64,000 nucleotides of DNA, from the NCBI GenBank assembly GCA_000310025.1, contig FN649738.1, forward strand, positions 2,113,556-2,177,555. The letters run 5' to 3'. The position numbers and the translations under genes were made by a program. Each line of letters opens with the position of its first letter. Within the stretch, counting starts at the first letter, position 1. The notes beneath the pieces are model-generated. The model was not told where the DNA came from and made no database searches. It was given only the letters and a program-made list of their open reading frames with translations. The stretch is from Ectocarpus siliculosus (taxonomy: Eukaryota > Sar > Phaeophyceae > Ectocarpales > Ectocarpaceae). Shown piece by piece: positions 27,981 through 61,136 of this stretch.

Positions 27981-31191
<3,211 letters not shown>

Positions 31192-32693: not shown

Positions 32694-35365
32694 ATGCGGC
32701 AGTCGACGTCTACGCAACAATCACCCCGACCGACGGAACAATCACCCCGACCAACTGCTAGAAGACCGACTTCATCGTCTCAGGTTGGCGGGCGAACGAG
32801 TTTAGGCGGCAAGACCGCTAGAGGGGCATCTGCAAGGTCGTCCATGCCCTCGGCGCGCGCAGTGGGGCCTCCGCCAACGGTATCAAGCGACGTATTCGAG
32901 ATTGTAGCGGATGGAAACGCGGATGTGCTGGAAGACATGATCGCCTTCTCTGGAGCTCAGCACATGTGCGAGCTGCGAAGCAAGAAGAAGGAGGACTACG
33001 GACGAAATCTTCTCCACTGCGCTGTCGCGAGCGGACAACGGCCGACGCTGCAAGTCTTGCTGAAACATGAAGCTTTCGACGCAAACCAGGCAAGTCCGAA
33101 AGAGTACAACCAGTCGTTAGGAACTACAGCCTAATTTTACAGCTTGTAATGTCAACAACGCACTTTCATGCAGCGTTACGGCAGAGCGCATGTACGCATG
33201 TACCTCCGTCGAAAAGACCATTGATGTTGTGTGAATCAACACAAACCGCGCGTGTGCAAAAGTAAGAGCTGCAGATAGATGGTGTAGTAACAGAGACAGA
33301 CTTAATCGACGTCTAGAATTTGTTGGGTGACATAAAACGTCTGTGATGCCTTCTGTGATCTTGGCTGTAAATCTGTGCAAGGTTGACCGATACGAATGTG
33401 TGGTGTGTAGGAGTTGGCAGGATTGTTGGACGCCGGTTTTGGCTACCGACAGGCCATCCCAACCGATAGGGACAGATCAAGGACTTTCAGGTTTCATCTG
33501 GGTTCTGGTGGTATCATGCGTTTACACATCTCCAGTACTTCTTGCCTTAAAAACAGAGCGGCATCGTACCTGTCAAACGAAAGCCAGGTCGCTACGTCGG
33601 TTTGCACGCCTTGCTTCGGTCCACCTACACGCCAACTAGATACAACCCGCCTGCGACAGGTGGACAGCGTGTACACCAGGAGTACGCCATTGATGGAGGC
33701 CGTCAAGATCGGTCGGCTAGACCTCATCGAGTGTGTAATTGCGGCAGGCGCTCGGCTTAATGTGCAGGTGGGATTCATCTGTCGAGACGTTCCTTCACTT
33801 GATTGATGGCATTGCAATTCCTTTGGTTTTCTTTCTTTTTCGTTCCTTTGATTTGTCGGCAGCCGTAAGTTGTGAGAGACCAAGCTGGTTGGGGTAGGGT
33901 CGACGGAAGATGCATCGAGTATGTTGCTTATGTCAATCTCAGAATAGGTTGTCGGTCGTTTCTACGGACTGTGCGCCCTGTGCCGCGGAACACAAGCAAT
34001 CATCGGGTACGAGCGGCACGGCGACAACGTCCACATTACTGCGTTGCGCGAATCTTGGCCAAAGCCTTACAGTAGGACCCCCACTTTTTATAATTTGAGC
34101 GGAAGAAGACAGGAATACCTTCGCAAGATTTCGAACTTCGTATGCACTGAGCCTGTTTTTCGCTGGAGCAGGACGTAAATGGCGACACCGTTCTTCATTG
34201 GGCTGCGCGGGAAGTTTCCGCGGCGTTTTTGAGGCAGGTTCTGCACTTGGCCCGGAAGCACGGCAGAACGGCGCAACAGATGCTGGCTGCGTTGCAGGTG
34301 CACTTCACTACCGTAACAGTGGTTAACACCCATGCTGAAGAAATATTGAATTGTTTTAGGTCGGGGTTGAAACATTGCGAAGTCCTGCTCTGGACTGAGT
34401 GAGCGTAATGTTATCGTAGTAAAGAAATCCAACTGACTGAAGGACCAAAACGTGCGTTCGTGTTTCGCTTCTTCCTTTCCTCCACTTCGGGGTAATGGCT
34501 CAATTGCTGCTGTACCACACAATCCTGACAACAGCTGAAGAACAACAGCGGGGAGAACGCCGCTGACGTTGGGGCCAATGACGTCGCCCGCGAATCCATC
34601 CGCCGCCTGGTGTCTGGCGAGGAGGCCCCCGGCCTGCCCCCGAAGAAGCACAACTCCTCAAGCGTGAGGGCCAGCCAATCCGGCATCAAGAGTAACGGGC
34701 GTGCATTATACGCAGCAGCACCAGAAGCGGGGGGAGGAGGAGGACTACGGCCGAGCCAATCTGGCCCTGTTGGTTCAAGTTCAGCAGGGTTACGGCCAAG
34801 CCAGTCAGGGCACACGACAGGATCCAGACCGAGCCAATCGGGGACTCCGCCAGGGGCGAGATCGAGCCAATCAGCAGGACGAAACCCGGAAACCAGAAAC
34901 AGCCAGCACCAGCATCACAGTCAGTCTCAAGCGACCAAAAGAAACCACAGACCGGGATCAGCTGCCACGTCGCCGACTCCGCAACCGGCCCCATTGACAA
35001 GACACTCTTCGCCGGGGACACGACCCGGGGTGATGTTGGGGGTGCTGACAGGCGGAGGGGGTAGCACGGCACCAACCCCAGAGGGGGGCATGGCAGTGGC
35101 GATGGCGCAAGGGGGGGCGGCGGCGGTGGTGGGAGAAGGGGTTGCCCGGGGGCAGGAAGGACAACCAACGAAGCCTTTGTTGCTCCCCAAGGTGAATAGT
35201 CTACACCTGGAAAGTGTTGTGCACCCTGCTAAGAATGTTAAACAACGACTAAGGTTGTTCTTCATGTTTTGCTAACAGTTCAAAGGTTGCCAGAAACATG
35301 ATTATACGATCGAAGATGGGAGGCAGCTTCTGACCTCGCGCCCTGTGGATGAAGAGACCGAATAG
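32694..35365 (+). CDS. ankyrin-repeat protein with RPSQSG-repeat tail, 5 exons, about 457 aa
   Basis: The start is the ATG at 32694, first in a long frame. Exons are 32694-33089, 33660-33767, 34172-34297, 34535-35191 and 35279-35365, all joining in phase 0. The first intron has a GC donor (CAG|GCAAGT). Residues 1-66 are Ser/Pro/Arg-rich with a duplicated QSPRPT. Residues 67-210 form about three ankyrin-type repeats: GRNLLHCAVASGQ, STPLMEAVKIGRLDLIECVI and NGDTVLHWAAREVSAAFL. Residues 211-429 are low complexity with five copies of R-[APS]-S-Q-S-[GA], then Pro/Gly-rich. The final exon ends at TAG 35363-35365; if the last intron is retained, the frame ends instead at 35275. The frame continues open after the TAG for about 100 codons. 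Ankyrin repeats bind proteins; no partner can be named. Confidence 0.75.
34669..34882 (+). repeat. coding repeat, five copies of an RPSQSG-like motif
   Basis: Within the fourth ankyrin exon, residues about 255-325, the motif occurs as RASQSG, RPSQSG, RPSQSG, RPSQSG and RSSQSA with 5-21 residue linkers rich in Gly, Ser, Thr and Pro. The DNA core of most copies is CCNAGYCARTCNGG. It looks like repeated short-motif expansion, possibly a phosphorylation or binding array. Confidence 0.8.
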
Positions 35366-36553
35366 ACTACGTCATCCGAAATACCAAATGATCGGCTTGA
35401 ATACGATTGGTACTGGCAGAAGCCTGAACCAAGACCTGTGGTGCTCTGCTTCCCACACTTTGAAACATCAACCACGATACCCCCGAAACCGGATACTACC
35501 GTCGTATCGTTCTTTCCACGGAATTGCTTTGGGAAGGTGAAAGGAGTGGTTAAAAGCTACGCTGCGATCGTTGGAGCAGCAGACGCGAAGAAAAATGAAG
35601 AGGGCATGATTCGAGTGAGAGCATCCTCTACCCCTACATCACCAACAGCTCATGTGCAAGAGACGCCTGGCTGACATTCTATCGGCCTAAAGCCATCCAA
35701 CTCTTGAAGGGAGCCAAGGCAGAACAGCGCTTTGTTACAGCGTTGGAATCCTCTCGGAATGTAAATGCTGTGTTAATAGGGATGAAGTGCTTAGTATGCA
35801 CTGTCGGATGTTGCCTACCGTCTGTAGGGAGGGGACACCATTGATAAGCAAGCCTTTAGCGTTATCGGCCGGCCGTGGTTATGCGCGGTTTCACAACCAA
35901 AACGTTATCTACTCCTTACTGCAAGCTGCTCGTTGGCAGCTGTGACCTACTTCTTCAGAGGCAGGAAGGGTACTCGAGTGAGGCTCCTTTCTACATGGCC
36001 TCTCTCCCCGCCCTCCCCTTAGAATAGATGGTCAGTATAGATATGGGGTTAGATAATGTCTGTTTCCCCCACAATAATTGCTATCGTAATTCATGTAAAA
36101 GAGTGCCTTGCACTATTGTCCTTGGATAATTTTGGCTATACTAGTATTTCATGTGGACAGAGGACAAGGCCCGGGCTTGGCCTGGTGGGCGGGATACCCG
36201 ACAATAGACGCTTTGGCTTCTCAGGGGTGCGGGTTTATGTTTCTTCAGGGCTAGCTCTAGTTGTAGGTGTGCTTCTGTCTTACACTTTCCCTATACTTCA
36301 GCTTCCGATGTTTAGTGATTGGTTTCATGTCCTCTTCGGGGATTTCCGTACTTTATTCTTCATTTTTTCGTGCCGAACTTGAGGCCTCAGGGACGACTGT
36401 CGTATCCTCGAGAGCAATGAGCCTTCTTCGGGTCTTCTTGTTGATTTACGCCCAAGGTTGTGGTTCGCTCGCAAAGTCGCATTTTTTCCTTTTGAGAGGG
36501 TGTGAGAGGACATAATAGATAAGAGAGCTTCAATTGCGAGGACAAGAGCAACA

Positions 36554-36584
<31 letters not shown>

Positions 36585-37744
36585 CGACAACAAGTGGTGC
36601 AGGCGTCAGTCGATGTGACGAAGACTACCGCCGACACACTCCAAACTGGAGCAAAACAGGTGGACAGGTATCTTTTGGCAGGGCCAGAGCTCCTTCCCCC
36701 AAAAACAAGCACCATGTAACCGTATGGGTAGGCGGTACCCCACAGTCACAATAGAACACCGCGCACTTGCGGCACGAATGAAACCTATGCGCCTCTGACT
36801 TGTTATCGCCATTCCCGAGCGAAACCATTACAAGATATGAGCTCAACGAGTTGGATCAGCACGTTCACATTTCTAATCTTCTGGTGTAAGAATATTCTGT
36901 CGGACCTGTTCCTACATTCTCTTGAAGGATAAACAACTGAAAGTAGCGAGTACTGCCTCAGGGACCTTCACAATTGTTTTGACCGACACTAGTTTGAGGT
37001 GGTCTCGGTTGACATTGCTTGGGTGCTGGGTCAAGCGCCATTCGTGGGCCCGCAGTCATCACTTCGACCATAGTGCCCTTGTTTCATGGATGCCCAGACC
37101 ACAACGGGGATAACCAGGTGGCAGCTTGTGGTTCTGGTCGTGAGACTTTCCAGTGAGTGCAAACAACATGCCCTACTCTCAATATCGGCCCAGTCTACTC
37201 ATCCATCGAAGGAAAAGAGGCGAATAGCATCACTGTTCTTCGTACACGTAACAAGCAACACAACGTCGGTTGGGAACTACTCTGTTTTCCGCCTACGAGA
37301 AAAATTATAGGTTTGTGCGCTTCGGTGGATAGACCTCGCCCGGCTTTGCGTCCCGGCCATCCTTGTTCAGGATATGAAACATGCATAGGCGCTTTTGACC
37401 ACATCTTCGCGAGCCAAATAGCTGGTACCAGCGACAGCCGAAACATACCTCAAGCGTTAGAATTGGATTCCCGCGACCCACCCATCATCATCACGGCCGC
37501 CAACCGAAAGTCTATCCAACGTACTAACGCGGCCGACCAATTATTTGAACACAGCTCAGAGTTGTTACCATGGTCTTCAGGTTGGATTTTCTCCAACTTA
37601 GGCGAAACACTGCACGGACGGGTTTCCACGTGCCAGACGTTGCATCAGGTTTCCCCGAGTACCCCAGACACGCGTGCCTTTGCGCACGTATGTTCCCTAT
37701 GGTAGTCAGCTTTCTCCCTGTCCCAGCATCTCACGCCCCTCCCG
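35366..37744. other. convergent spacer between the ankyrin gene and the LRR-IQ-WW gene
   Basis: The neighbouring genes both end here. An in-frame extension of the ankyrin ORF runs to 35674 after one TAG. A CAG-rich tract lies at 36547-36595. A minus-strand stretch at about 36746-36846 reads HRFHSCRKCAVFYCDCG before a GT, and another at about 37318-37440 reads CFGCRWYQLFG and later CMFHILNKDGRDAKPGE. These Cys-rich bits may be exons of an unrecognised minus-strand gene. A 182-codon plus frame at 37157-37705 has no recognisable motif. Confidence 0.4.
36547..36595 (+). repeat. CAG/CAA trinucleotide tract
   Basis: The tract is about nine CAG units followed by CAA units, reading poly-Gln on the plus strand and continuing in frame to a possible donor at CAG|GTGGAC near 36659. 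It could be part of an unrecognised exon, but no gene model supports it. Confidence 0.8.
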
Positions 37745-40700
37745 CTAGCCTCGGGGAGTCTGGAAGCCTTCAGGTCTGTCGTATTGGGTCTCCGATGTCC
37801 TGGGCCACGCCAGACACAGATTCATGAGAAATGGAGGGCGCAGCAAAATGTGGACGATTCTTAGCGCCACCACAGCTCGGCGATTGACTTGATTGGTTCA
37901 ATATTTCCCCGACCTGTACCTTTTCTTTCGGAGGTGTTTGAAAATCAATACAAAAGCAGCACGTGCGTCGTGAGGGCTACATCACAGACGATATTATGGA
38001 GGAGAGTTCGGATGTTTTTCTTTGTCTTCAACAAGACGCGGTACTCGCCTGAAGTTGTGGTAGTAGTCCACAGCGTACTCCGCGTCGTAGTACTTGGTCC
38101 AATCGCCCCAAGAAGTAGTGGACCCCGCCCCGCTTCCCTCCACCATGACGCCACCATAAGTTTGCTCTTCTCCATCCGTATAAGCGCCGTCTCCCTGAAG
38201 GGCTAGCATGGGTTCGCCGCTATAGAAATACGAGGAGTCTCCGGTCACCTGGTCAAGAGTGGTGCGCAGCGGAGTCACCAGAGCGCCGCACGTTTTGCGG
38301 AAGCATCAAAGAGAGGAGAAGAGAGGGAGGGGGGGGGCGTACTCATTGTTGCTTGCCTTAGTCATTTGACCATTGGCCACGCGTGGGAGGGGGGGGGGGG
38401 GGGAAAAAGGAGGAGGTCCAAAATGGTCCTTGGGAAAACTATCATCGTACGCCAAACAGTACGCAAGTTGCTGTGCTTCAAATCGAGATTGAATGCTTGG
38501 AGTTTGCCTCGGTTTCGTTTCATGTTGCAGTTTGAAGTTGGAAAAAAACGCACGAAGGCACGAAAATTGTCGAGGTACAGCAAGATATGCCGTTGAAGGT
38601 ACTTGGCTTGGTATGGAGCAGCTGGAGAAATGATCTTCCATACCCTGCCAATTTCTTGCCAGAGTTGAGAAGAGGAGACTTTGGGCAGCTTTCGTCGCGA
38701 CCAAAAGACTATAGGTACGCTCGCCCCCACCGGCAACGGGCGTTCAACGTCGACCCCCCACCTTCTCGAACGTTGGCTTCGCTAAATATTTGTCTATTCG
38801 TCACGTTGTGTCTCGTGGGAACGAACAGGCTCGCATGCTGGCTGATCAAGAGATCAGGAACGCGAAGCAACGCCATCAACTCACCCTCGCGCGTCGCCGG
38901 GCATTTGCGTCCTGCGAGAGGTACCAAGAGCATTGCTGGGCGTTCTGTGGTAACCTGTACTTCTATCCGGTACACAGTCACCACAAATCTCGCCTGGCTC
39001 ATGTCATTGCTCCAACTGGCGCTGCTGTCATTAGCAGCCTCTTCTGACGGCTCGACGTCGAAGAACGAGGTCTCCAGAGCCTGTGTCTCCAACCAGTCCC
39101 ATTCGGCAGGGGCCTGGTAGGACGATTCGCCTGGGGGAAATCACGGGCGAAACAAAAAGAGACAGAAATGACTTGAGTATTTCGACGCGAAGGCAGGAGT
39201 ACCGCCAGTAGTAGGAAAAGTACCATAAGAGGCGGAGAGATCGCACCCCCCCTAGACCGACTTTCAAAGATCGATTGCTCCACAACCAAGGGGGTTCAGA
39301 AAGAGCCCGATACGTCGACAACAAGCCTTCATGATATGTTTCCAAAAACACAATTTTTCGTTTTTGGAACAGTCTTGTTGATGGAGTAATCGAGCTTTCA
39401 AAATACGTCTAGGGGGGTGCCAAATCTCCGCCTCTTACAGTACGCAGGCGACAAACACCGGGTTTGTGTACCAGCTTGCTGGTTTATCTGGTGGCGCAAG
39501 AAGCAGCAGATACCACGTAATATATAAACGTAGGCGGTCACACGCCGCCGGAGTGTACTTCGACACTCCGAAAAGGCCAGACCAACAGTGAAGCAAACAA
39601 GCAGGTTCCGGGTACTCTTGTGGCTAAACGAGACTGCACGGTTTCACAATGTGCGGGCTTCGGAAAACGACTGCCAGAAAGGCGTGACTTGTCTCAGCTC
39701 CTTCGTCATTCTAGAAGTCCATCCAGGGAGTGTATGGCTATCTTTAGTACCCAGTTATCATGCTGTTGTAAATGCCACAAACACGCCTCGCAGTGTCTTT
39801 AGATAGATAGTGCAAGGTGTTTCCCCAGGACACGGGTTTGTTTGTTCTGAGCCTCAACCACGACCTCGCCGCTCATGGTGTTTATCGCACAAAACACAGT
39901 CAGTAAATGTATGCGCACTGACTGGGTCATTCTCTTTCAAGAGCACCGTTTTCCGATAGAACAACGTGCTGCAGCTGTATGAACGACGCACACGCAGGAT
40001 CTTTCAAACGGGAAAAAGGCGAACACTCGACGACGTTCCGAGCGTTTTCTCACCTGTGACAGCATTGTAGTACAGGTCTTCTCCGGGATAGGCACTCCCG
40101 TCAGCGCTGTCGCCACCAGCCTCCGCCGTGTACCTTGTCCAGTCTCCCCTCTCCTCCGCTGGCTCCCTCTCGGGCGCCACCCGGAGCTGCCATCCATTCT
40201 CGTCGTCCTGACGGAAAAAACAAAAGGAAGGTGCCCGACTGCGGTCAGCGGAAGATCCAAGCGATCGGCTAGCCCTGTTCCGTCCTAGAACGACCAACGA
40301 TACACACGCAAAGATTAGCCAAGTTTGAGCAACAGCACGGACGACGTCCGTAAGAATGCGCGATCATCGTCTTCTGATTTCCCGTGGCACGTGGCAGGTT
40401 TAAAGACGACAATGCAACATGCGATGCTCACCAGGGTAACGTCCTTCTGGTAACCTGTCGCGACGAAGCTTGCGTAAGCTACGACTACAGTCAGTGTCGA
40501 CAAACGCCATTTCCACCGACGGAACCTCGAAAAGAATAGATTGGGGTCAACTGGTTGTTTAACGTAGACACCACTGGTGCGAAAGAAGGGAGTACGGCCA
40601 ACCTGAGCATTACCACAACCCGCTCAGAAGGTTAGTCCCTGCTCGATCCATATCGGACGGCAAAGAAGATCGGAACTCCCTCGCCCCCTACTTCATATAC

Positions 40701-41723
40701 TTACATCTTCGGCGTTGTGTTCGAAAAATGCGAGGAAAGTACAACACAAGATCCACACACAAGCCTCCTTGCCTGTAGCACGTCGGTTGGCCAACAAGAC
40801 GGGAACTCCCCCTCTCCATAGTCGACCCTCTTTCCGTAGTAGTCGTAAAGAGCGCGGAACTCGTGATGGAGTCGTTTTCCTCCCCCATGCACCTTTTGCA
40901 CGTCGTCGACAGGTTCGCCGAAAAGCAGCAGAGAAACAATCAAGTATTTCGTATCGCTCTAATTCCTACTGGCTGGTAGATACTCTCGGCCACGCGACAC
41001 CCAAGGCATCAAAGAGACAACGAATATATAAGGTAGAGGACGAGGGAAGCAGCCGATATATGTTGCGAGGTCTTTTCAGGGGCTTGGGTATTGTTCAGAA
41101 GTAAAGGTGACTCGTGACTGAGGCCTCGCGGTTTGGTTTAGGCGCAGCGGTACACCTGCCGTTGACGCCAATCACAGCTCATACACGATGCTGTCAAACT
41201 TTCAATCCTTACGCTTGGTAGGTTTTTTTTAATTTCGCGCCCTCCAAATGACACGACTCCTTTGTGTCGGTAACACAAGGGTGAGCGGAGTTGCGGATGT
41301 GGAGGTCGACGCCCACCCGCACGCCGTGAAATTGGGCTCTTGATACGCCTGGAGATGTCATTCGGGGCTCTAAGATCGTATCGTAACACCAGATGTACAT
41401 GGATTCAACAAATCTTGTCATAATGCTGATTCTGATTCTGATTCACATTCAACGTTGAACATGTCTGCGTCAATCTACGCAGCGCCGACCCGGATCAGGC
41501 AACAGCATACACCCCCCCCGTGAAGTCGATAGGGCGGGGGGGGGGGATACATTGATGAACTGATGGTTGCTTGACCCACCTTGCGGTAACAAGCGGAGCA
41601 GAAGAATTCTCCACAGTCGGCGCACTCGCTGAAGGCCTCGAATAGGCAGCAATCTCCGCAGGATGGCCGAGGGAGAAGTTCCAAGAAGTCTTGCGGCCGC
41701 CTCCACCGTATCTCTCCAGAAAC
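37745..41723 (-). other. WW and B-box zinc-finger block of the giant gene
   Basis: The 41723 exon begins SGEIRWRRPQDF, the end of a WW domain, then carries a B-box-like finger C-x2-CC...ECADCGEFFCSACYRK that continues in the 40892 exon as VHGGGKRLHHEFRALYDYY. The 40207 exon has GDWTRYTAEAG and later DLYYNAVTG, joined to ESSYQAPAEW (39130 exon), a WW-like unit with an insert. VTGDSSYF begins the 38248 exon, which ends with DWTKYYDAEYAVDYYHNF; after a GC-AG intron the last exon gives RTSETQYDRPEGFQTPRG and stop. WW domains bind proline-rich ligands; the B-box binds zinc. Confidence 0.82.
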
Positions 41724-44700
41724 CTGGTCCCCGCCCCCCGCAATGGTTCCGAAGGACGTAAGGTTGTCGGAGTTAGTTTCGGAATATAAAAAGACAAATT
41801 TGACTTCATCGCATGCATAGGGAGCGGGGAGGAGGTTGCTTGGCTTGAACGAAGAGTTGTTGAGGCATTTGTGGAATCATGGGTTGCCAGGCTTGCACAT
41901 TAAACCACTGAAAGGCTGGGGGTGGTGGAGCGATACCTATGTTCGTGGGAACATGCCACCTCAGTCACGACCATGCTGGCACCATATTCTTGTACTCTCA
42001 TTTCTGTGCGGTTCATGCTTCTAGTCCTCCGGGCCTCTAGTCCAGAGGCTGTACGGCCGATCCTAACGCCCGCGTCTGCGTGTCCTGCAGGGTGACGAGC
42101 TACGGTAGAGGCGATGGATGGCACTACGAGATCCTGTCCTTTCGTACCGAAGGTTTGTGTGGTTTCTTACTTCTTTTTTCGAGAAAAATTGCAGCGGAAA
42201 CGGGCCATTTTTTCCTTGTTTATTGATGGGAGTCTGCGATCGAAAGGAGGACTGCATCAAACAAAAGCAGCCCGGCACGCGGTGTATCACCGTAGTCGAG
42301 GGGAACGCGAACCGGGGTGGGAAGGGGTTGGAGGAGCCCTACGATACTACATTTTTTTTTTTTTGTCTTCACTTCAAATCAGCGCTCACAGCACTACGTA
42401 GTGCCGTTTACTCCAACCCGTGGTCACACAGAAGAGCCCCTCTCTACCCTCCCCTCCTGCGGTACTTTGCCTTCGTTTTTTAATGCGAGAAGAGTTCAGC
42501 ACTCTCTTCCCTCTGTGTACACACGAACTAGCGCTATCCACTAGGCCAGGAGCGGAAGCGAGAGAAAAACTCACTTTGCAAGAAAAGCTCGCTTACGCCG
42601 GGATTCGAACCCCTGACCTGACCTCTAGAAGGTTTCGAGGATACCAACTAGACCACCGGGGCGACCGGCTACTACATGTCGGACGCTGGGTGTCCGCAGC
42701 AAACAAGGTTCCAACGATGATACGAAAGCAACGATTCGTGCAATTACCATCTTTTTGCCATTGATCACGAAACCAGAGCAGATCTTGTTTGATTTCAGCG
42801 AGGCTTCGTCCACAGGCCTTTTGGGATTCTTCTAGCATCTGCCTCTCNNNNNNNNNNNNNNNNNNNNNNNNNNNNNNNNNNNNNNNNNNNNNNNNNNNNN
42901 NNNNNNNNNNNNNNNNNNNNNNNNNNNNNNNNNNNNNNNNNNNNNNNNNNNNNNNNNNNNNNNNNNNNNNNNNNNNNNNNNNNNNNNNNNNNNNNNNNNN
43001 NNNNNNNNNNNNNNNNNNNNNNNNNNNNNNNNNNNNNNNNNNNNNNNNNNNNNNNNNNNNNNNNNNNNNNNNNNNNNNNNNNNNNNNNNNNNNNNNNNNN
43101 NNNNNNNNNNNNNNNNNNNNNNNNNNNNNNNNNNNNNNNNNNNNNNNNNNNNNNNNNNNNNNNNNNNNNNNNNNNNNNNNNNNNNNNNNNNNNNNNNNNN
43201 NNNNNNNNNNNNNNNNNNNNNNNNNNNNNNNNNNNNNNNNNNNNNNNNNNNNNNNNNNNNNNNNNNNNNNNNNNNNNNNNNNNNNNNNNNNNNNNNNNNN
43301 NNNNNNNNNNNNNNNNNNNNNNNNNNNNNNNNNNNNNNNNNNNNNNNNNNNNNNNNNNNNNNNNNNNNNNNNNNNNNNNNNNNNNNNNNNNNNNNNNNNN
43401 NNNNNNNNNNNNNNNNNNNNNNNNNNNNNNNNNNNNNNNNNNNNNNNNNNNNNNNNNNNNNNNNNNNNNNNNNNNNNNNCAACAGAGAGAGAGGGGTTAG
43501 GGTTGAACAGCATAGCTGATATTTTCTTACCTGTATTTGAGTCGCTGCCCAGTCCTCTAGCCTGGACATCGCCCGCACTTCGTCCTCGTGGTTCTTCTTG
43601 CGGGCCTCGGCCTCCACCCTTACCCTGTACCGCCGGTAGTACTGTTTTTTTTGTGAGCGTGACGTGATGCACCCCGGCGGAACGTGTTGTCGACAGGGTG
43701 CGGAGGGCGCACAGGGCGGGGGAGGAGGGAGGGGAGGGGAGCCATTTGGTGATTGTTTGCAGTGGCCCTTTGTCCGGTTGACCAAGCATGTCTTCAGGCC
43801 CGGGAGGGTGTCGGGGGGATGTACCAACGTGTTGGATGTACTCATGTGTTGCGCCTCTTGGCGCTGTGGCTAGAGACTAGCCAGGTATAGTCCCTCCAAC
43901 CTTCTTGTTTTCGTGTTCCGCTTCCAGTAGCAGGGGAAGGATTGGGTGACATCGAACGGGGGGGGATAAATCCCAAGCGTGGTCTTTTTCGAAGCGGTCC
44001 CTCGTCTCCCCACTACTATTGCTGGCATTACCGGTGCATATCAATCCGCAACAGGCTAAACACCAAGTGTGTCGCCTTGGTCCGCGGCTCTACTGTTGTT
44101 GTGGCAGGAATCTTCCACGATTGACCTCAACGTACCATACCGTCGTGTGGGAGGAGGAATTTGTGGCCTGCCAAAAGTTCTTGCTTGAAAAGGTTTCAAC
44201 ATACATGCAAAGATTCACGCTTCCATAGTACGCGCATATGCATCTCAGTGACAAACGCGGCTAAGAGCCTCGCGTCATTTGTCTTTTCAAAACAAAACAA
44301 CCGTTCGTTATTCACAGTTTTCCTATGTCTCATTCTTGATGTAAAAAATATAGCACTTTTTCCTTGGGTCCGGCATATCACAAAGAGATCATCGATACTC
44401 AGTAATCATACTTTGGCGGCCTCTTCTTGATACGCACCCATCCTCGACCACGCTAACGCATAAACACCATTGAAGCACCTGCTGTATTGTCTTAGCTCCG
44501 TTTTGCTCCCGGACCTGCCGAAGCTGCTTGTTCATGGCAAGCACTCCACACAACGCCTTGCTGGTGATCAAGCGCTGCCAGCACTGCAACCTCAGTGCTG
44601 CGCCTTTCTCCCTCTCCACCTGCGGTGCCCCCCGAGCCGGAGGAAGTACGCAACACAACAAAAACACGATAAGACAAACACGGGGAAGATACAGATAGCG

Positions 44701-50700: not shown

Positions 50701-53700
50701 CTCCTCACGGAGTCTGCCAACAAAAAAAAACTGGATCCTAAGACGGAATATCACCGTGCGAAGAACACCTGTCCTGCGTACTTGCGTCATTCCGGTCAGC
50801 ATACACTCAGCGAGGTTTGTAACCACACGCATTATCCTCTAGTTGGCTCAATGTATTCTTGCCTTTATGCGGCTGTACGGGTAGCGCTCCTTGATGATGT
50901 TGAGCGCCGTAAGCGTGGCCTTGGTGCCCTTCAGGTTAAGAGAGGACAACGCCGGGCATCCCGCCACCAGCCACTGCACCCCGGCTCCGGTGATCTTGGG
51001 ACAATCCATCAGGACGACCTGTGGATGTGAGACAAATAAGATTCAAGGAGAAAGGGTCAAGTTTTTCGAAACGTTGCGAGACTTTTGAAGAAAAAAAACG
51101 TCCTATCCGAGATCCCGGTCGCCATTGCTGGTTCGCAAGGTACTTGAATCTGGGAAGATTGGTCAGACTCCCCATCCCCCCTAGACGCTTTCTCACGCAG
51201 GGCGGACGAGGGACTTCAGCATCACGGGTAAAGCCTTCTTGTACTCAAAGTGTATAGGTAGACAGGATGAGGATATGTTTTTACGTGGGAGGGGGGGGTT
51301 CGTGCGTAGCCGTTGGGAATAGAGACGAGTTTTGTTGTTTTTTCTCTGCCTCTCTGGTGGTGTACGCCCCACCTCGCCGTGCTGGGTTCATATCGGTCGG
51401 ATGAATTTGTTGCGATTGCCACGAGCCACACACCCACGCGTGGTGTGACACTCCATAGAATTATCATCGATAAAAACATGCTCACATTTCTCTGGCCGCA
51501 TCTACTCCGTAAGCGCGGTGTCGACATGCTGGTGTACACTAACTCAGCGTCACCCCGTTTCCTTACCATTAACATTCTTCATGGATCCACACGCTTGTTC
51601 AAGGCGAGACTGCGTACTGCGTACCACTCACTTTCTCAAGCTTCTCCATCTGGTGGTCGTGGAACCCGACCAGGGCCGAATCTTCCAGGCTCAACACCTC
51701 TCGAAGGTCCAACAGTTCCAGGTCTCGACAGAGGCTGCACACGGCAAGGATTCCTGGCGCGCCGAGGGGGGGTGGTACGCCTACAACTCCCCTCAGGCAC
51801 AGCCTTCGAAGGCGTCGACAACCCCTCGCGAACGACGCAACGGCAGCGTCGGTCACTGCGCTCCCGCAACTGCAACCGACCGAAGCCACGACTCGGTGTC
51901 AAGGTACGCTTGTTTGCCATCATTATAGTATTGTGCTTTCGGGATAAACGTGGCGGTTGAGATAGGTTTTGAAGGACGTTTGTCTTGCCGAGTGTGTGCT
52001 GTCACTCCTGCTCTGATCTGCACTGCGATAGCAGCAGTGCCGCGCTGGATGCTTTTCCCTACTGCCGACCCAACGCCCACCTCTCTAGCTTATCTTTTCT
52101 TGCGCGTCTCACCAGACGTGTGTATTGCCCTCTTTGTGCTTCGTGTTACAACGCAAACAGCAATAGGTGGGCAACGCGTACCAAACATTCCAAAAACAAT
52201 GTACGTTATGTCTTCGCTGCCACCCCTGTTGATGATATTGAGAGGCACGTTGGATGATGGGGAAGCCGATGTACTGCTATGGACTCTGTTCTGGACTACT
52301 CAACGGTACTATCCAGCAGCGGAATTTATATGCTCGGCCGCGGGCATCAATAGAGAGAGAAAACGGATCGAAATGCCAACTAGATGTGCTCCGAATCTGC
52401 ACCCCAGCGAAACTAACACCAACCTTTCTGACCAGAATCGCACGCTGTAATTCTCTGCTTCCCACCCGCTGCCCAGCCTCACCCTCTCCCGCTAAGGGAG
52501 TGACACAAAAAGCAAAGGTGGGGTACTCCCGCAATACATCTGCCTAAGCTTTATCCCTCCTCGTTCCAGCGAAACTTGTTTACAATACGAATACCACTCA
52601 CTTAGGGAGGTTCAGTTCCGTTAAGTTTGGGCAACCTTTCGCCACAGCAGCCATGCCTTCCTGGGAAAGACCCGGACACCGGGCCAGAGACAGCCGCTTG
52701 AGTGAGCGCAGCCCGCCGCCCACAGACCGGAGCGCGGTCTTGGAGATCTGGAAGCACCCGTCTAGGACTAGCGTTTGCAGTCCTGTGCAGCCTTTTGCGA
52801 GTGCCTGGTTGTTTTATGGTCGACCGTTGGTTTTCAAGTTCGAGAAATCAGTATGTGCATATAGCTCCCGGTTTTTCACGAGACGGGGGCTAACGCCCAA
52901 GAGCGTAGCGCAATGCGGACGATTCTGGGCGGACAAAGAACTAGCCTCATTTTAGAGAGAAGACTGGCTGTACGTACAGAGTAGCGGGTTCGTGTTGCTG
53001 CAAACCACTTGTATAGGGTGCCCACATGGCGCCAACCACAGAACTTGTTAGGAGAAGTTGCTGTTTCGTTAGCGAAACCGTCAGCTACTACGCTGTTGCC
53101 GGCTACAGAAGCACTAACTCCAAACGAACTCCCGAGGTCTTCACCATGCTAGCCAACAAGACAGAACGTCGGGGCCTCCGTAGCGGCCAAGAAAAACTCT
53201 TTGTATGCCATCCAAACAAAAAACTAATCGAGACGAGCGGAATTATGTTTTCAAATGGCAGGCACACCCCGATTTGCCGCGGAACGATCCGTATTTCCCC
53301 TCCCTTCGGCGGCAGATCAAAGCACGGCCAGACGAAACGACAGAAGACGTTGTCAGGTGGTTGAGCAGGCGTGCACGTTGCGTGACTGGTCATCACCTGG
53401 ACCCCCGTGAGGGCGAAGTCTCTCTGCATGCCGTCGGAAAGGTTGACGATCCCGGACAAGTCCAGGTGTGTCAGCCTCGTGCACGAGCTACCGAGCCTGG
53501 CCACGCCGATGTCGGTGACGTGCTTCAGGGACGCCATCCCGAGATGCTCGAGCAGGGGGCACCTCTCGCAGAGGCTTGTGACTCCCGCGTTTGAAACCTT
53601 AAGGCGTCCAGCAACCAAGTTGATGGGGAGATTACGTGCCTCTTGCACTAGGGTTACAAACGGCAGGGAATAATTCTTGGGATCAATTGGGAAATATACC

Positions 53701-56700
53701 CGCTAGTATAGTCCCGCGGCACAAAAAACAGATGATCTTCCTTTTCGCGATTGAAACGGCATGGTAGGCATGGTACGTACCAACATACCCGATCCTTGGT
53801 AAAATTGGTACGACACCCTTTACCCGATCCATTGGTGACCTCGGTACGATATTCCGTACCGTACCACAGGTATCCGTACATTACCAAACGCAAACATGGA
53901 TAATGGATGGGAAATTTTGACATCATAATCCCGCGATGGGAGCCTCTTTTTGAGTCCCGACCATGCACACAGCGAGGTGAAAAAATAGGACGTGGTGGGA
54001 TATATTTATCAAGGAAAAAGTAGCAGGTTCCTGGGTTTGAAATCTGATGCAATGCTACGCTGGTGTAAATTTACTAAGGCAGATATGCACGTTATTCTCA
54101 AATGAATCCGTAGCGTGTGAGTGGGACTCCTTGCTACGTAGTCGAAGGTACTTGTATCACAAGACAGCCCTTGGTCGTATTTCCAACACCGTTTGTATCG
54201 AGCACAAGCAATGCCATCGGAAGTCTAAAACCAGCAACCTAGCTTTGCAAACCTTGACGCAACCAGACACATCCAGATATTCCAGCGCAGGGCAGCCGCT
54301 GGACATCCACGCAAGGCCAACATCCGTTACACCGTCGCAACCCTTCACGCTAAGCCACTGGAGTTCGGGGCAACCCTCACCCAGAGCCTGAGCTCGGCCG
54401 GGTACGAAGAAGGACGGAAAAGCAATGAATGGTTGGGTCGGATCAGATTGGGTCAGAGCAACATGGCAAAGAGAGACTTGTATTGGGTCCTGTGCTTTTT
54501 ATTCATCGACAACTTGTCGCTGATCTCCATGGCCCAGAATCCTGGCAAACAAGGTGGTTTACTTCGCAATTCAATATGCTATCTGTTTCGCGACAATGGC
54601 TTCAGTCAATGGCTTGCTTCAGTCGAGGGCTTCAGGTGGTCAACAACGCCGAGGAGAAAGCGAGTTCGGGTTCTATGGTGTTACGAACTGAAGACTCCTC
54701 TGCTTCGCTTCTCACCATCAGCGTAACATCGCCAACCTTGAAGGGCAGCTCTGAACGTGACAACTCCAGGACGGTCAGCGAACTGCAACGCCTTGCCACC
54801 TCCAGCAGGCCGGTATCGGACACCTTATATTTATTGCGCACACCAAGGCAATGCACGCGGTTGCGGGTGGATACCGCAAAGCAACCGGGAAATCGCCGTC
54901 CAAGGCGAGGGTCAGCAGCTGTCGTACAGAGGGAAGGGTTTAAACCATCCAGGTTACGTTGAGTTCCGTGCTGGAGACAACGGAGGATCATTCCCCAACT
55001 GCAGGACCACCTTCGCGAGAAAAAACAATCATGAGTAAATAGAACAGGGAGGGGGTACGCATCCCTAATCCTAACCCCAACCCAACTTCCCCGATTGCAT
55101 GCTTTATCCAACATGTTTACTTGGTACAAAAACCCTACGAAGGCTACTGAAACTCCACCAACGGGTGAAACCATTTTTCCTTGCAGCACTACTGTTCCCG
55201 ACAAGAAGATGGGGGCAGATACCTGGTTGCAGTCTTTCAGGTCTAGGCGTACGAGTCCGCGGCACCCCACCCCGAGCTCTTTGAGCTCCTCGTCTCCCAC
55301 CCGGGAGCAGCGCGCCAGCGACAGCGTCTCGAGCGCACGGCACCCCCGAAACAGTCTCGTCAGAACCCAGTGCCCAATCTGGCGTTCCGTTCGTTCCCGT
55401 CGCATTCCACGCCGTTGCGGCACCCAGTCAGTGACGAAGGGAGTGGCGAGAAGAGTGTGCAGTTGCTCTTGCTGTACGGGATCAGGGCTGCTACCGCAGA
55501 CTCATTGGATGTGGTGGTTCAGCCGTCGTCTCCCGCTACCTATTGGGGAAGCTACGGGCGCAAACCTGTATGCCCCTCTCTGCTAGAATGGACGAACAAA
55601 GCTCGCTTGAACACACACAGACGAAAAAGTGAAACTTCCATTAGATTAACTTGGCGCCATTCGTTGGGGGAAAGGGTGAAGCCAACTCTCACGCTCTCAA
55701 ACGAGCCACCCTTGCTTCCTTCCTCTACCGCCCTCCTAATTACCTACGTCGTGAAGCGGTAAAATCCATTCAGAACCGAAGCAGTGTCTTTGAAGCACGG
55801 CACCAGGAGAAGCAACAACAACAACACATATATTACTCAGCAGAGAAGGAATTCGGACCGCCCCTAGCTCGGTGGGTTGCCGAAAAAAAGAGAGTGTCCC
55901 GAAACGGAGGGCGTTGCCTTGTTTCGTTTGAGCTACCGTGCTCCTCGCCTGCTTGCAATCGGATAAATCGAGGTGCACCAGTTTCGGGCAGCACTCTCCC
56001 ACGGCCGCGAGTCCAGGTCCACAGATCGCGAGGCACCCGCTGAGGTTGAGCTGGGTTAATCCGGTGCAATTCACGGCGAGGGAGCCTGGCACACATGGAA
56101 AAAATATGAGGGCACATGGAAAAAATCGATTTGCATGGCGAGCATGTAGCAAGGGGGCAGGCAATCAAGCAAGCATCCCCCGACGCCGTTTTGGTATCGG
56201 AACAAAAAATGAAGGGCACCTAAAGACTTCGCAATACTCTGCTGGACGGATCAGACAAGTAGTTGGTGTGGGGCTAATAAAAGAAGGCGTTGTCACAAAG
56301 GGTTGGGTGTGGGGGCGTTCTAGGGCACCCAGTCTATCTCAATGACACCAGGAAGCTTGGACGAATATCATGGGTCTGACTAACATCTCCCTTTGCTGCT
56401 ATTTTTTGCATGTGCAAGTCAACCCTGCCGTTTGACGAGCCCGACTACAGTAATTTGGAACGACGTAAGGTGAGCGCATGTTGGACTAGCGTCAATGGTA
56501 TCACAAGAAAGATGCCAAACAAGCAGTACGTCCAATTCGCATAGATCGTTTTGAAACGACTTCAAAAACACACGAATACGTGTGACCTCTCCCCTCCCCT
56601 GCCCGCCCCCCCGCCCAAAAAAAGCGACATATCAAGGTACTGTGGAGTCCTCACGGATGGCAACGTCTGTGACCCGAGAGGCACCGGACATATTTAAGGA

Positions 56701-59547
56701 CTGCAGGCGGCGGCACTGTGCGGTCAGCACGGCGACCCCGCTGTCTCCCACCCCCTGCGCTCCTGAAATATCGAGGGATGTGAGGCCTTCTTGGTCGGTG
56801 AAGCGGTCCTGTGTGGCATTGTAGGTGAGCCAGGTTCGATCCGTGGTGTTTTATTGTTGGAGCGAACACCAGCAGGTGATCAAAAGTTGTTCGGCATTAT
56901 GTACAATGTTGCAGAGCGAAGCAAACACTCAGTGCCTTCTATCTAGGTTACATGTGATTGTGTTGGGGTAAGTGAGAGAGTTTCGGGCAGGGCACCTCGA
57001 GAAGACGTGATGCTGGAAAACTGTATTGTAATCGCTTCGGAGTGGATCATAGAGCAGACAGACACAAGCAGCCCGCAAGGTCTTGTCTCCGCTTATCACA
57101 AGTTCCTCTTGTTCAAAACAACACGAGACGACGTACAAGAAAGAGCAATCGCACTGCATTCCTTCCTTCTGCCGGGCGCCACAATGACATGCATGGTGCC
57201 AACATTTCTTGCATCTATCTGCAAGGAGACTTTTTGCCCGCCTTGCCTTTTGGTTCAAAGTATTAGTGTATCAAGGAAGGGCACAACCTCGCTTTTCCTC
57301 TTCGCCGTACATCCATCTTTTAGTACATGTCACGTCCAATTGTAAGTACAGAGTCGCGACAACATCTTCAACGTTCATCTGAATCCAATATCGACTACGC
57401 TGTGTTGCGAATAGTTGTGCAGGTGTGTGTGTGTGTTTTCTACGGAATCACGCCCGCTAAAAATAAACAAGAAAACAGGGTAGCTCTAGTGCAGAGATCA
57501 CAGTACACGATACCGACTTCTCTCTGCTACTTCGGAACAAAGGAAAACGTGGCACTCTCCAAATGCAATATGTCATGAGTTTTGTGGCAAACTTACGAAT
57601 AAAGACGATTCCGAGCATGGTTGGTGTGTTTTCCCAAGAGTGCCTGGTACACCTCGACGCCCAACAACAGGACGAGAGGGGACTCGCGCTATGGCGAAAC
57701 TCCTGACCCTAGAATGCCACTCTATTCCGTACATACGGCGTCACCACACCAATTCTAATGGTTCATGAATTTTGAGAAGAGGCGCTGGGCAAAAGGAAAG
57801 CGTACAACAAATATGACGCCGACATATCACCTGGGCACGCTCAATTTCCTCCGATTTCATCCGCTCTAGGGTCTGCTTTTCCCTCCAGGCCACCATGGAA
57901 GAAGCGTCGAATTGAGCCACCCCCGAAGGGTCCATTCCTTTGAACGCGGCTGTGAGCCCCATCGCATCAATGTGGCAACCAACCTACACGTTCCCCACAG
58001 GTACGTTTGTCAGTGTTTGTTCATCGTGGCGCCAGTGCTTGAGTGAGTTCTCGGGGTTCGTTCAGTTGATAGGGGTGTTGACGCGGGGCGTATGTTTCGT
58101 TTACTGTGAACTCTGATAATGCTCCCGTGCCGTGAATTCATGGTGCCGTGGTTATGCCGGGCTTCGTATGCCAGACGCTAGACCCACTCACGTTGATGTT
58201 GCTCTTCAAGGGCCTGCTTTCAGGCATTCGCGTCCAAGCTCCCTCTCCACGAGAGTTGCACAATTTTGGTCGAACGAAGATCGTCGACGCTAAGCACGAG
58301 AAACAGACAACTGCTGTTCCGACAATAGCCACACGGCACGACAACAGTCCTGTCGCCTACCCACGTTATGTCGCCGTGCTGCGGTGGAGCACGTACGTCT
58401 CAAAATGGCAGAGAAAATTGTGAATGGGTACACAATAATACCTTGTTAACGCTGCTCTGACGGGCAAGCTTGTCGATTCGGTCCCGATCTCCTGCTGCTA
58501 TGCATCTCAAGGCATCGTCATCCACAAGCAACGACCATGCTGCGAGGTCGATGGACTTGGTCCCATCCCTAGCCCGGCATACTTCTGGCGGGACGCTGTC
58601 GTACGGCAGGATTGTGGTGTGCTCGTAAGCTTTGATGGCGCTTTTGACACTTTCTGCTACCCTGTAAGATGGTCGATGCGCGCGCGAAGTGGACGGGGAT
58701 GAGCCAAGAACAAAGCCATTTTCGACAAAAGAAATCATTTAGATACCCCGTTCCGTGTTTGATTGATTTTATCATAGCACGTTCTCGAACACGCGGCCAT
58801 GCCTCATCATTCATGGTATAGATAATATCAGCGGCAATCAAATCGGAAAAATCCACGCAAAGGTACGCCTTTGCTTGAAGATTGAAAGGTCCTCCAGATT
58901 GCTGAGAGATCGACGATGCTGTTAATACAGACACTCATTGTGTGCCACTGCAACGTTACCCATGTTGGCCGCGTTGAAAATCTGCGATGCTGACCAGGCC
59001 TGGTCGAGCACCGACGGGCACTAAATAACTGATCGTTGCATCCGATATAAACAATTAGGGGTTCCATCAGAAATAATGCAAATTGTGTTTACACGACTGC
59101 TGGGTTGTCCAGCCAATGTGCACATGCATAGCGCGGTGTGTAGATTGTGCACCAAGTTTAGAACAACGGACAGCAGTAGTAGATACGTCTGCTGCTGTAA
59201 CCTTCAGACTAGCGCAGGCGGGCTTCTACAGTATGTAACAGGAGTCTCAGTACGGTATACGACCGGCTCCGAGAGCAGTTTAATACCAGCACGCCATTAT
59301 ACCCGGCGAGAGTGGCTGCAACGGCATCGGCCGGGGCAGAGCCGCTCAACCCTGATCCGTTTTCCGCTGAAAAGGTGACGCTTGGCTCGTGTGCTGCCGG
59401 GGAGCCACCACGCTCGCCGCCGTTGCTGATGTCATCACAGCTACCGTCTGGAGTTCCTCTTCCGAAAGCTGCCACGGGAGCGCGCGGGTTGGATTGAAGC
59501 GGGGCCAATGATTGTTTTCTCTTAAGAAAGTTTGGATCAGCCGCCAT
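37745..59547 (-). CDS. giant LRR - IQ - WW/B-box - WW protein, at least 24 exons
   Basis: The start is the ATG at 59547. Exons that join in phase: 59547-59303, 58661-58442, 57983-57831, 56808-56655, 56085-55949, 55378-55223, 54970-54716, 54387-54253, 53597-53397, 52804-52602, 51869-51632, 51018-50863, 50158-50046, 49371-49257, 48916-48816, 48104-47907, 46783-46588. Then about 45457-45335, 44630-about 44440, 43641-43531, (gap), 42847-about 42737, 41723-41580, 40892-40773, 40207-40054, 39130-38994, 38248-38049 and 37799-37745 with stop TAG. The model exceeds 1,450 residues; one or more exons may lie in the 42848-43479 gap and near 46000. Calmodulin binding through the IQ motifs and a flagellar or scaffold role are inferences from domain content. 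No close named homologue was recognised. Six introns use GC donors. Confidence 0.83.
42593..42665 (-). pseudogene. tRNA-like Pol III element with intact A and B boxes
   Basis: On the minus strand a tRNA-like sequence has an A box TGGTCTAGTTGG (42655-42644), a perfect B box GGTTCGAATCC (42611-42601) and a T5 terminator about 35 bases downstream (near 42565). The anticodon-loop position would read CTA. The acceptor stem does not pair over seven bases and the T stem pairs at only three positions, so a working tRNA is unlikely. A second A-box-like TGGCCTAGTGG lies at about 42549-42539. It sits in an intron of the giant gene, on the same strand. It is a tRNA pseudogene, a SINE head or a small Pol III RNA. 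Confidence 0.55.
42848..43479. other. assembly gap of 632 N inside the giant gene
   Basis: The gap interrupts the coding region: the exon on its left side (42847 down to about 42737, reading ERQMLEESQKACGRSLAEIK on the minus strand) is cut by it. At least part of one exon is therefore missing. Long frames spanning the N run are artefacts. Confidence 0.95.
43531..50158 (-). other. IQ-motif block of the giant gene
   Basis: At least nine IQ-like calmodulin-binding motifs were read across nine exons: ARKIQGCFR continuing into TMKARKEVRARR across the 50046/49371 join, IVLQKLWRKAIARM, TTIQRRYRGVLGRRKACRRR and MIQQRFRMHR (48104 exon). Others are RVLQRRWRSYRARQELER and CIQKFVR (46783 exon), TTIQRHYRGVIARVHYV (45457 exon), LRLQCWQRLI and AKTIQQVLQ (44630 exon), and ATQIQ at the 43531 donor. 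Basic and acidic linkers look alpha-helical, so the region is probably a long calmodulin-loaded rod. The joins 46588/45457 and 44440/43641 are not fully phased. Confidence 0.8.
48518..48541. repeat. (CT)n microsatellite in an intron
   Basis: A short CT run lies in the intron between the 48816 and 48104 exon edges of the giant gene. Confidence 0.8.
50863..56808 (-). other. leucine-rich repeat block (AMN1/LRR_CC type) of the giant gene
   Basis: Nine exons encode about 12-13 cysteine-containing LRRs of the F-box/AMN1 kind. Examples are SLDISGAQGVGDSGVAVL (56808 exon), LTQLNLSGCLAICGPGL (56085), LETLSLARCSRVGDEEL (55378), LSVKGCDGVTDVGLAWM (54387), LTHLDLSGIVNLSDG (53597), LKRLSLARCPGLSQEGMAAV (52804) and LMDCPKITGAGVQWL (51018). 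Intron positions vary within the repeat, so it is not a simple one-exon-per-repeat array. The three exons before it (59547-57831) encode about 206 residues with no known domain, one of them helical and charged. No F-box was seen. Confidence 0.88.
53760..53890. repeat. diverged tandem and palindromic repeats in an LRR intron
   Basis: ACCCGATCC followed by TTGGT and then GGTACGA occurs twice, and a near-palindrome CGGTACGATATTCCGTACCG follows. The intron lies between the 54253 and 53597 exon edges. It may be a remnant of a small inverted-repeat element. Confidence 0.5.
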
Positions 59548-60145
<598 letters not shown>

Positions 60146-61136
60146 ATGGGCGCGGCAGCTTCTGTGTCGGCCGAGGCGGAACTGACCACGTTTAAGGAGA
60201 TGCGGTCGAAATTCGAGGCGAGTCGGGATCTGAACCACTTCTACAGTAGAACTCTATATATGCTCTTCTCTCCACATGTACATCACGATGGTATCAAACA
60301 ACAATTGGAAAACAGAGCTTGAGCCCTTGCGTTCACTACAATGCAATACTACAGGGACACTCGCTCTAGGCTGGCAAACTCTTTGATGTTGAATCACGTA
60401 CCAATGCCCTGTCGGGATGTATTCGTGTAGAGACATTTCACTTCACATGCGGACCAATGTTTACCCTAGACAGCAGTTCCATTCGTTGACTCAGCTATTC
60501 GTGTGACATGTGCATTGTATTGCGCATACGGTTGCCGTTGTGTTCGTCGTCATCGGAACCGTCCCTCGTAGTATCTGCTCACGCACTGCCAATCAAACGG
60601 TCCTGCCTTGTCTGCTAAACGACCTTCAATTTACAATTTACGCTATCCATGGACATATTAGGGAAGTACGGTGAAGATGAAGGGCATGCGTACTTGTTGT
60701 CAACGCTTCCAGCACGCCCTACGTATAGTGTCGGTTGTTTTGCGTTGACATAATGGGTGTTAGACGCATCTTCTTCCGTGCTGGCATGTTTCCGAAACTA
60801 GAATCAAGTGGGCTTGATCCACTCGACACAACACAACCTCAGGCGTTGAAAGAGGAGGGAAAAACGGACGAGGACATCTATGCCGAGCTCAAGACCTTGT
60901 ACAACACCGCAGTCGGCACCGCCAGTGGCGACGCCCCCCCCGATGGTGCTGGTGCCGACGCGGAGAAGCCAACAGCTGCCGCTGAGGCTACCCCCGATGG
61001 CGCAGCCGACGCAGCACCGCCGGCAAGCGACGCAACAGCAGCGGAGCCTGTTGCAGCGCCTACAGAGGCCGCACCGGCGCCAGCCGTGACGGAAACACCA
61101 ACGGCCGACGCGGAGGCGGCTGCTACTGCGGAGTAG
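60146..61136 (+). CDS. small Ala/Pro-rich protein, probably N-myristoylated, 2 exons, 121 aa
   Basis: Exon 1 is 60146-60217 (24 codons) and exon 2 is 60843-61136 (97 codons and TAG). The intron has a GC donor, GAG|GCGAGT, and a CTCAG acceptor; the join restores the helix FKEMRSKFE-ALKEEGKTDEDIYAE. The start MGAAASVS fits the N-myristoylation consensus (Gly2, Ser6), which would anchor the protein to a membrane. Residues 1-50 are helical and charged; residues 50-121 are Ala/Pro/Thr/Glu-rich and probably disordered. I do not recognise a named family. An alternative start in exon 2 (60735) would remove the Gly2 signal and is less likely, because the exon 1 join is so clean. Confidence 0.75.

What the first reader, a model, noticed from the sequence alone, without database searches (positions are those of the whole stretch)
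33087..60220. Unusually many GC-AG introns, concentrated in one gene
At least eight introns need a GC donor to keep the protein in frame. Exon ends are 33089 (CAG|GCAAGT), 38049 (CAG|GCGAGT), 38994 (CAG|GCGAGA), 40773 (CAG|GCAAGG), 50046 (CAG|GCAAGA), 50863 (AAG|GCAAGA), 55949 (CAG|GCGAGG) and 60217 (GAG|GCGAGT). In each the next exon continues the domain (LRR, IQ, WW, ankyrin or helix) in the right phase, and the rest of the donor is near perfect. This is roughly 8 of about 60 introns, well above the about 1% usual in many eukaryotes, and six are in one gene. No GC donor was needed among the resolved introns of the TTLL gene. It may reflect a U1/donor preference of the lineage or a way to regulate splicing.
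Basis: partly seen in the sequence, partly recalled or inferred. Interest (0 to 1): 0.75.

Follow-up and report, generated by a model that had tools for sequence, protein, structure and literature searches.

The report
Ordinary GC-AG introns, clustered in one gene
Eight introns in this stretch appear to begin with the rarer letters GC instead of GT; they look like the known, ordinary kind of GC intron, six of them fall in one gene by what may be chance, and whether the whole genome is rich in them could not be settled here.

Summary
All eight GC donors are where stated. Support is best at 33089 (ankyrin), 38049 (WW), 50046 (IQ-like) and 55949 (LRR period), fair at 40773, 50863 and 60217, weak at 38994, where a GT rival is nearly as good. 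With 15 decoy dinucleotides GC scored best for WW, IQ and ankyrin, but not for the LRR stretch.

All six U1 genes found have the canonical 5' end. Elsewhere in the window and its 100 kb flanks, 2 of 51 homologue-anchored introns are GC; the LRR-IQ-WW gene model has 6 of 28 (p 0.02, post hoc).

GC donors carry both halves of the donor consensus (10 of 11), anchored GT donors rarely (3 of 48): the known compensation rule, sharply drawn.

The genome-wide share was not obtained: the genome server did not answer. Verdict: ordinary U2-type GC-AG introns, perhaps locally enriched.

The parts
33090..33659 (+). GC-AG intron of the ankyrin gene, donor CAG|GCAAGT
   Evidence: best pair; GC best of 15 non-GT dinucleotides (18.2, next 9.7); Pfam Ank on the joined protein
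37800..38048 (-). GC-AG intron of the LRR-IQ-WW gene inside a WW motif, donor CAG|GCGAGT, phase 2
   Evidence: 27.3, next 16.7; joined WW 21.8 bits, under the Pfam cut-off
38249..38993 (-). GC-AG intron of the LRR-IQ-WW gene, donor CAG|GCGAGA; least certain of the eight
   Evidence: best pair, but GT rival 38885 scores 4.1 against 4.8; GT 38982 chosen by one parse
40208..40772 (-). GC-AG intron of the LRR-IQ-WW gene, donor CAG|GCAAGG
   Evidence: best pair (5.0; best GT 2.7); no conserved domain across the junction
49372..50045 (-). GC-AG intron of the LRR-IQ-WW gene inside an IQ-like motif, donor CAG|GCAAGA, phase 2
   Evidence: 8.2, next 2.7; Pfam reports no IQ there
50159..50862 (-). GC-AG intron of the LRR-IQ-WW gene after the last LRR, donor AAG|GCAAGA; acceptor not certain
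   Evidence: no GT pair with the anchors used, four acceptors fit
55379..55948 (-). GC-AG intron of the LRR-IQ-WW gene between LRR exons, donor CAG|GCGAGG
   Evidence: only GT/GC pair with the exact 26-residue period; chosen, though AG and CA decoys gained more over the whole LRR stretch
60218..60842 (+). GC-AG intron of a small alanine-rich protein gene, donor GAG|GCGAGT; acceptor 60843 or 60855
   Evidence: best donor; no Pfam match
   Evidence: protein upstream is not covered by the alignment to 5vlq
37645..57962 (-). LRR-IQ-WW gene, model of 29 exons and 28 introns, six GC
   Evidence: gene finder; Pfam LRR_4, LRR_6 and IQ; a 632-base gap lies inside
27995..31191 (-). alpha-tubulin gene, three introns, all GT, used as comparison
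1634..9529 (-). conserved core of the TTLL3-like gene, used as comparison
   Evidence: 5vlq E 3.9e-72; introns

Best explanation
These are ordinary U2-type GC-AG spliceosomal introns. The +2C makes one mismatch with U1; the rest of the donor (AG at -2,-1 and RAG at +3 to +5) is close to fully complementary, so that U1 pairing stays in the range of the GT donors. U1 itself is canonical. GT donors here usually carry only one of the two halves of the consensus; donors with both halves are those that can tolerate a change of T to C. A few percent of introns outside the LRR gene appear to be GC; the six in the LRR-IQ-WW gene are a nominal cluster that may be chance or a mild local bias. Shown: sequence, frame and domain continuity, compensation, U1 sequence. 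Inferred: splicing in RNA, and the history of T to C changes.
For: Best donor is the GC site in 8 of 8. GC best among 15 decoys for WW, IQ and ankyrin. Two GC donors in a flanking dihydroxyacetone kinase gene, one (contig 2043889) the only GT/GC pair at the length of the gap-free alignment to 1un9. Both halves of the consensus in 10 of 11 GC and 3 of 48 GT donors, p 5e-8; predicted U1 pairing -6.1 (GC) and -7.4 (GT) kcal/mol, and -10.6 for the GC sites with T. Six of six U1 copies found have the canonical 5' end. None of the eight donors has an ATCC in its first eight bases, so none looks U12-type. Closer fit of the other donor bases to the consensus in GC sites is the known rule (PMC2490688, Findings section read).
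Against: No RNA. Ab initio decoys are nearly as frequent as GC. 38994 has a good GT rival. In the LRR stretch AG and CA decoys gain more than GC.
Confidence: 0.72

Rival explanations
1. The lineage is GC-AG-rich genome-wide (5-10% or more), as in Aureococcus or Micromonas pusilla, through a U1 snRNP protein, RNA modification or base composition; the window is a typical sample.
For: Two GC introns in the flanking dihydroxyacetone kinase gene; Aureococcus (39.6%), M. pusilla (22.2%) and Chlorella (7.7%) show that such genomes exist, the first two with an unchanged U1 5' end (PMC3033335, passages).
Against: 0 of 42 introns in BLMH, CCD, PPCS, TTLL3 core and two tubulins; 2 of 51 with the kinase. 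G+C is about 53%, well below those of Aureococcus (69.5%) and M. pusilla (65.9%).
Confidence: 0.25
2. The LRR-IQ-WW gene, or this stretch, is specially enriched in GC donors, for regulated or alternative splicing or through a local mutation bias.
For: 6 of 28 against 2 of 51, p 0.02. Predicted donors with both halves of the consensus: 9 GC to 6 GT in the window, 2 to 18 in the flanks (p 0.003).
Against: Gene and window chosen after looking; with TTLL 5408 counted, p is 0.06. The eight introns share no detectable sequence similarity. Nothing tests regulation.
Confidence: 0.2
3. Most of the GC donors are gene-model artefacts, as in the first Heterorhabditis annotation (8.9% GC-AG, later 0.8%).
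For: PMC5906903 (passages). High decoy rate of the ab initio model, shifting parses, and a GT rival at 38885 for site 38994.
Against: Domain-guided splicing with decoys at 33089, 38049 and 50046, the exact LRR period at 55949, and the kinase junction at contig 2043889.
Confidence: 0.1
4. A U1 variant complementary to GC donors recognises these introns.
For: None found.
Against: Six of six U1 genes found with RF00003 begin ATACTTACCTG. Diverged copies below the search threshold could be missed.
Confidence: 0.03

Closest known systems
U2-type GC-AG introns (0.8% of introns of human coding genes, PMC7242645; about 1.2% in plants, PMC6310983; passages read)
   Same: GC donor, AG acceptor, rest of the donor close to the U1-complementary consensus, canonical U1
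   Different: Locally denser (6 of 28 in one gene model); not shown in RNA
GC-AG-rich algal genomes: Aureococcus anophagefferens 39.6%, Micromonas pusilla 22.2%, Chlorella 7.7% (PMC3033335, passages read)
   Same: Many GC-AG introns with a canonical U1 5' end (in Aureococcus and Micromonas)
   Different: G+C here about 53%; anchored share elsewhere 2 of 51; genome-wide share unknown
Heterorhabditis bacteriophora first annotation, 8.9% GC-AG, later 0.8% (PMC5906903, passages read)
   Same: High apparent share from gene models without direct RNA proof
   Different: Here single junctions are held by protein domains and decoy controls
Negative coupling of the exonic and intronic halves of donors (PMC4671708, abstract; PMC10599564, abstract and passages)
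   Same: Consensus bases in the two halves of GT donors tend not to co-occur
   Different: Here nearly exclusive in a small set (3 of 48 with both), and GC donors are the exception (10 of 11)

Membership tests
U2-type GC-AG introns | GC at the intron start and AG at its end are needed to join the coding exons | tested here: met
   best pair in 8 of 8; decoy-controlled for three; 38994 uncertain
U2-type GC-AG introns | rest of the donor closer to the consensus than in GT donors | tested here: met
   both halves in 10 of 11 GC and 3 of 48 GT donors, p 5e-8; possible ascertainment bias
U2-type GC-AG introns | not U12-type | tested here: met
   no ATCC within the first eight intron bases in 8 of 8; branch points not examined
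U2-type GC-AG introns | spliced at these sites in RNA | not testable with these tools
GC-AG-rich genome (Aureococcus or Micromonas kind) | GC-AG share far above 1% genome-wide | tested here: inconclusive
   2 of 51 anchored introns outside the LRR gene, interval 0.5-13%; genome search not answered in 28 tries
GC-AG-rich genome (Aureococcus or Micromonas kind) | canonical U1 5' end | tested here: met
   six of six copies found
Gene-model artefact (Heterorhabditis kind) | GC junctions not needed once independent evidence is used | tested here: not met
   independent protein evidence needs GC at 33089, 38049, 50046 and 55949; not shown for 38994

The most novel reading that the evidence does not exclude
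In this lineage over-strong donors are avoided: GT donors hold only one half of the U1 match, and donors that hold both halves tend to carry +2C, so that, by gene or region, GC is the usual state of a fully matched donor and the C-A mismatch keeps U1 pairing under a ceiling. In the anchored sets the fully matched donors are 10 GC to 3 GT; gene-finder predictions give 9 to 6 in the window but 2 to 18 in the flanks, which speaks against a genome-wide rule. Whole-genome motif counts (MAGGTRAGT 3105, MAGGCRAGT 4883) do not decide it, since background models give similar numbers.
Probability: 0.15. Interest if true: 0.6.

Novelty: new member of a known kind. Interest (0 to 1): 0.3.

Why it matters
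If GC-AG introns are common here with a canonical U1 and moderate G+C, gene finders that forbid GC donors would break many genes of this lineage, and base composition could not be the whole explanation of GC-AG-rich genomes. If they are only locally dense, this is a caution for annotation and no more.

Tried and rejected
U1 variant with a 5' end matching GC donors: not seen in the six copies found; diverged copies could be missed.

Genome-wide motif counts as an estimator: dropped. The counts in the 227 kb at hand differ in pattern, and observed/expected for the GT motif runs from 0.65 to 1.31 with the order of the background model. A note of mine that calls the GT donor motif depleted is not supported.

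Ab initio gene finder alone: kept for gene models, not for a rate, because of the decoys. The first version made zero-length exons and was changed.

Spread of GC introns by a common sequence: no similarity among the eight beyond self-matches, and one short match of the 38994 intron elsewhere in the flank.

Spliced alignment of the dihydroxyacetone kinase (DAK) to 1un9: unreliable at that divergence (6 GC introns against 2-5 for each decoy). The DAK tally uses the junctions within the range aligned. In TTLL3 the aligner placed one GC intron at 8195 at the seam of two pasted homologue segments, across an unalignable insert; it is not counted. Decoys gained nothing in BLMH and CCD, up to 7.0 in PPCS (AG) and up to 7.9 in TTLL3 (TC).

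The tally of 51: BLMH 11, CCD 11, PPCS 6, TTLL3 8, two alpha-tubulins 3 each, DAK 9 (7 GT, 2 GC). Dropped from DAK: two introns outside the aligned range and one judged spurious (residue 500, donor score -1.0). TTLL 5408 is outside the 51.

The 48 GT donors: BLMH 11, CCD 8, PPCS 5, TTLL3 8, one tubulin copy 3, DAK 7, LRR gene 6. Dropped: three CCD donors and one PPCS donor on which the two methods disagree (for one, the gene finder's choice, at window coordinate -51305, has both halves, so dropping it favours my reading), the second tubulin copy, and the TTLL donor at 9347. An earlier table (54 GT, 10 GC) gave the same picture.

The organism was not identified; a guess of a brown alga was from recall and not tested. 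In the held library, 'GC-AG introns' with 'brown alga' gave one paper, with 'stramenopile' one, and 'GC-AG' with Ectocarpus two; none has this subject in its title. That says nothing about papers not held.

Full report
Setting. The window is C13:2113556-2177555 of a genome of 189.5 Mb in 492 contigs, about 53% G+C, CpG observed/expected 0.98. The species was not identified. Genes seen: a TTLL3-like glycylase (best PDB hit 5vlq, E 3.9e-72), an alpha-tubulin, an ankyrin gene, an LRR-IQ-WW gene and a small alanine-rich protein.

Check of the eight sites. The GC dinucleotides stand exactly where stated. For each site I fixed a peptide anchor on either side and listed donor/AG-acceptor pairs that keep the frame without a stop, donors of any dinucleotide allowed. 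Only the stretch inward of the anchors was scanned. The strongest cases are 55949 (exact 26-residue LRR period), 38049 (WW, phase 2), 50046 (IQ-like, phase 2) and 33089 (ankyrin). At 50863 no GT pair exists with those anchors, but four acceptors do. At 38994 a GT pair (38885 with 38238) is nearly as strong, so that site is uncertain. The 60217 protein has no Pfam match, and Pfam reports no IQ motif in the protein that holds the 50046 junction.

Decoy control. A spliced aligner was run with GT plus one other dinucleotide at a time and the same context score for all, against domain consensus strings. In the LRR stretch the GC at 55949 was chosen, but AG (16.5) and CA (17.7) gained more than GC (8.4), and a second GC chosen there (53428) is probably spurious. 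The WW, IQ and ankyrin strings were written after seeing the joined sequence and resemble it in places, which favours a join of the right length but not GC as such.

Rate elsewhere. Against PDB homologues, bleomycin hydrolase (BLMH), a carotenoid cleavage dioxygenase (CCD), phosphopantothenate-cysteine ligase (PPCS) and TTLL3 give 36 counted introns, all GT (one GC at a seam left out). Two alpha-tubulin genes add six GT. The flanking dihydroxyacetone kinase has nine, two of them GC: contig 2043889 (CCG|GCGAGT) is the only GT/GC pair at the length of the gap-free alignment to 1un9; contig 2045234 (AAG|GCAAGC) lies in a loop of variable length, with no GT pair among those listed. So 2 of 51. The LRR gene model has 28 introns, six GC; not every predicted intron is verified, and another setting gives other exons. 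Fisher p is 0.02, or 0.06 if TTLL 5408 is counted, for a gene picked because it looked rich. In gene-finder predictions, donors with both halves of the consensus are 9 GC to 6 GT in the window and 2 to 18 in the flanks (p 0.003), again post hoc and unverified.

Compensation. Of 48 anchored GT donors 28 have AG at -2,-1, 21 have RAG at +3 to +5, three have both and two neither (p 3e-8). Larger, unverified sets from the gene finder show the same direction more weakly (odds ratios 0.15-0.37); choosing donors by a summed score can itself create part of such a pattern. Of 11 GC donors ten have both. Negative coupling of the two halves is known in mammals (PMC4671708, abstract) and in almost all of 30 eukaryotes (PMC10599564, passages). 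A strong context that lets GC be fixed neutrally has been proposed for mammals (PMC2490688, Findings section).

U1. RF00003 finds six genes, all over the cut-off, all beginning ATACTTACCTG. This matches Aureococcus and Micromonas pusilla, whose GC-AG shares are high with the same U1 5' end and whose authors call the origin an enigma (PMC3033335, passages).

What failed. The count in conserved families genome-wide could not be made: the server did not answer in any of 28 tries. Motif counts cannot replace it. Of eight genomic CAGGCGAGT sites at hand, one parses as a donor, by a small margin. Heterorhabditis is the warning: 8.9% GC-AG in the first models, 0.8% after re-annotation (PMC5906903, passages).

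Conclusion. Probably real GC-AG introns of the known U2 kind. Local density is high and its cause open. A lineage-wide excess is unproven and a U1 change unlikely.

Noticed in passing
L018:334 and L018:1679 (contig C13 2043889 and 2045234, minus strand): Two GC donors, CCG|GCGAGT and AAG|GCAAGC, in a dihydroxyacetone kinase gene about 70 kb left of the window.
   Followed up: yes
window 27995-31191 and contig C13 about 2208000-2212664 (L028): Two alpha-tubulin genes with the same three intron positions; the predicted proteins look the same over the part printed.
   Followed up: partly
window 1634-57962: Alpha-tubulin, a TTLL3-like glycylase and an LRR-IQ-WW gene lie side by side, all plausible parts of a flagellum (function inferred).
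   Followed up: no
anchored GT donors of the window and flanks: GT donors carry AG at -2,-1 or RAG at +3 to +5 but rarely both (3 of 48).
   Followed up: partly
window 42848-43479: A 632-base run of N inside the LRR-IQ-WW gene, so its exon count may be incomplete.
   Followed up: no
window 59935-60041: A (AG)n microsatellite of about 53 copies just upstream of the 60217 gene; the gene finder reads part of it as coding, probably wrongly.
   Followed up: no
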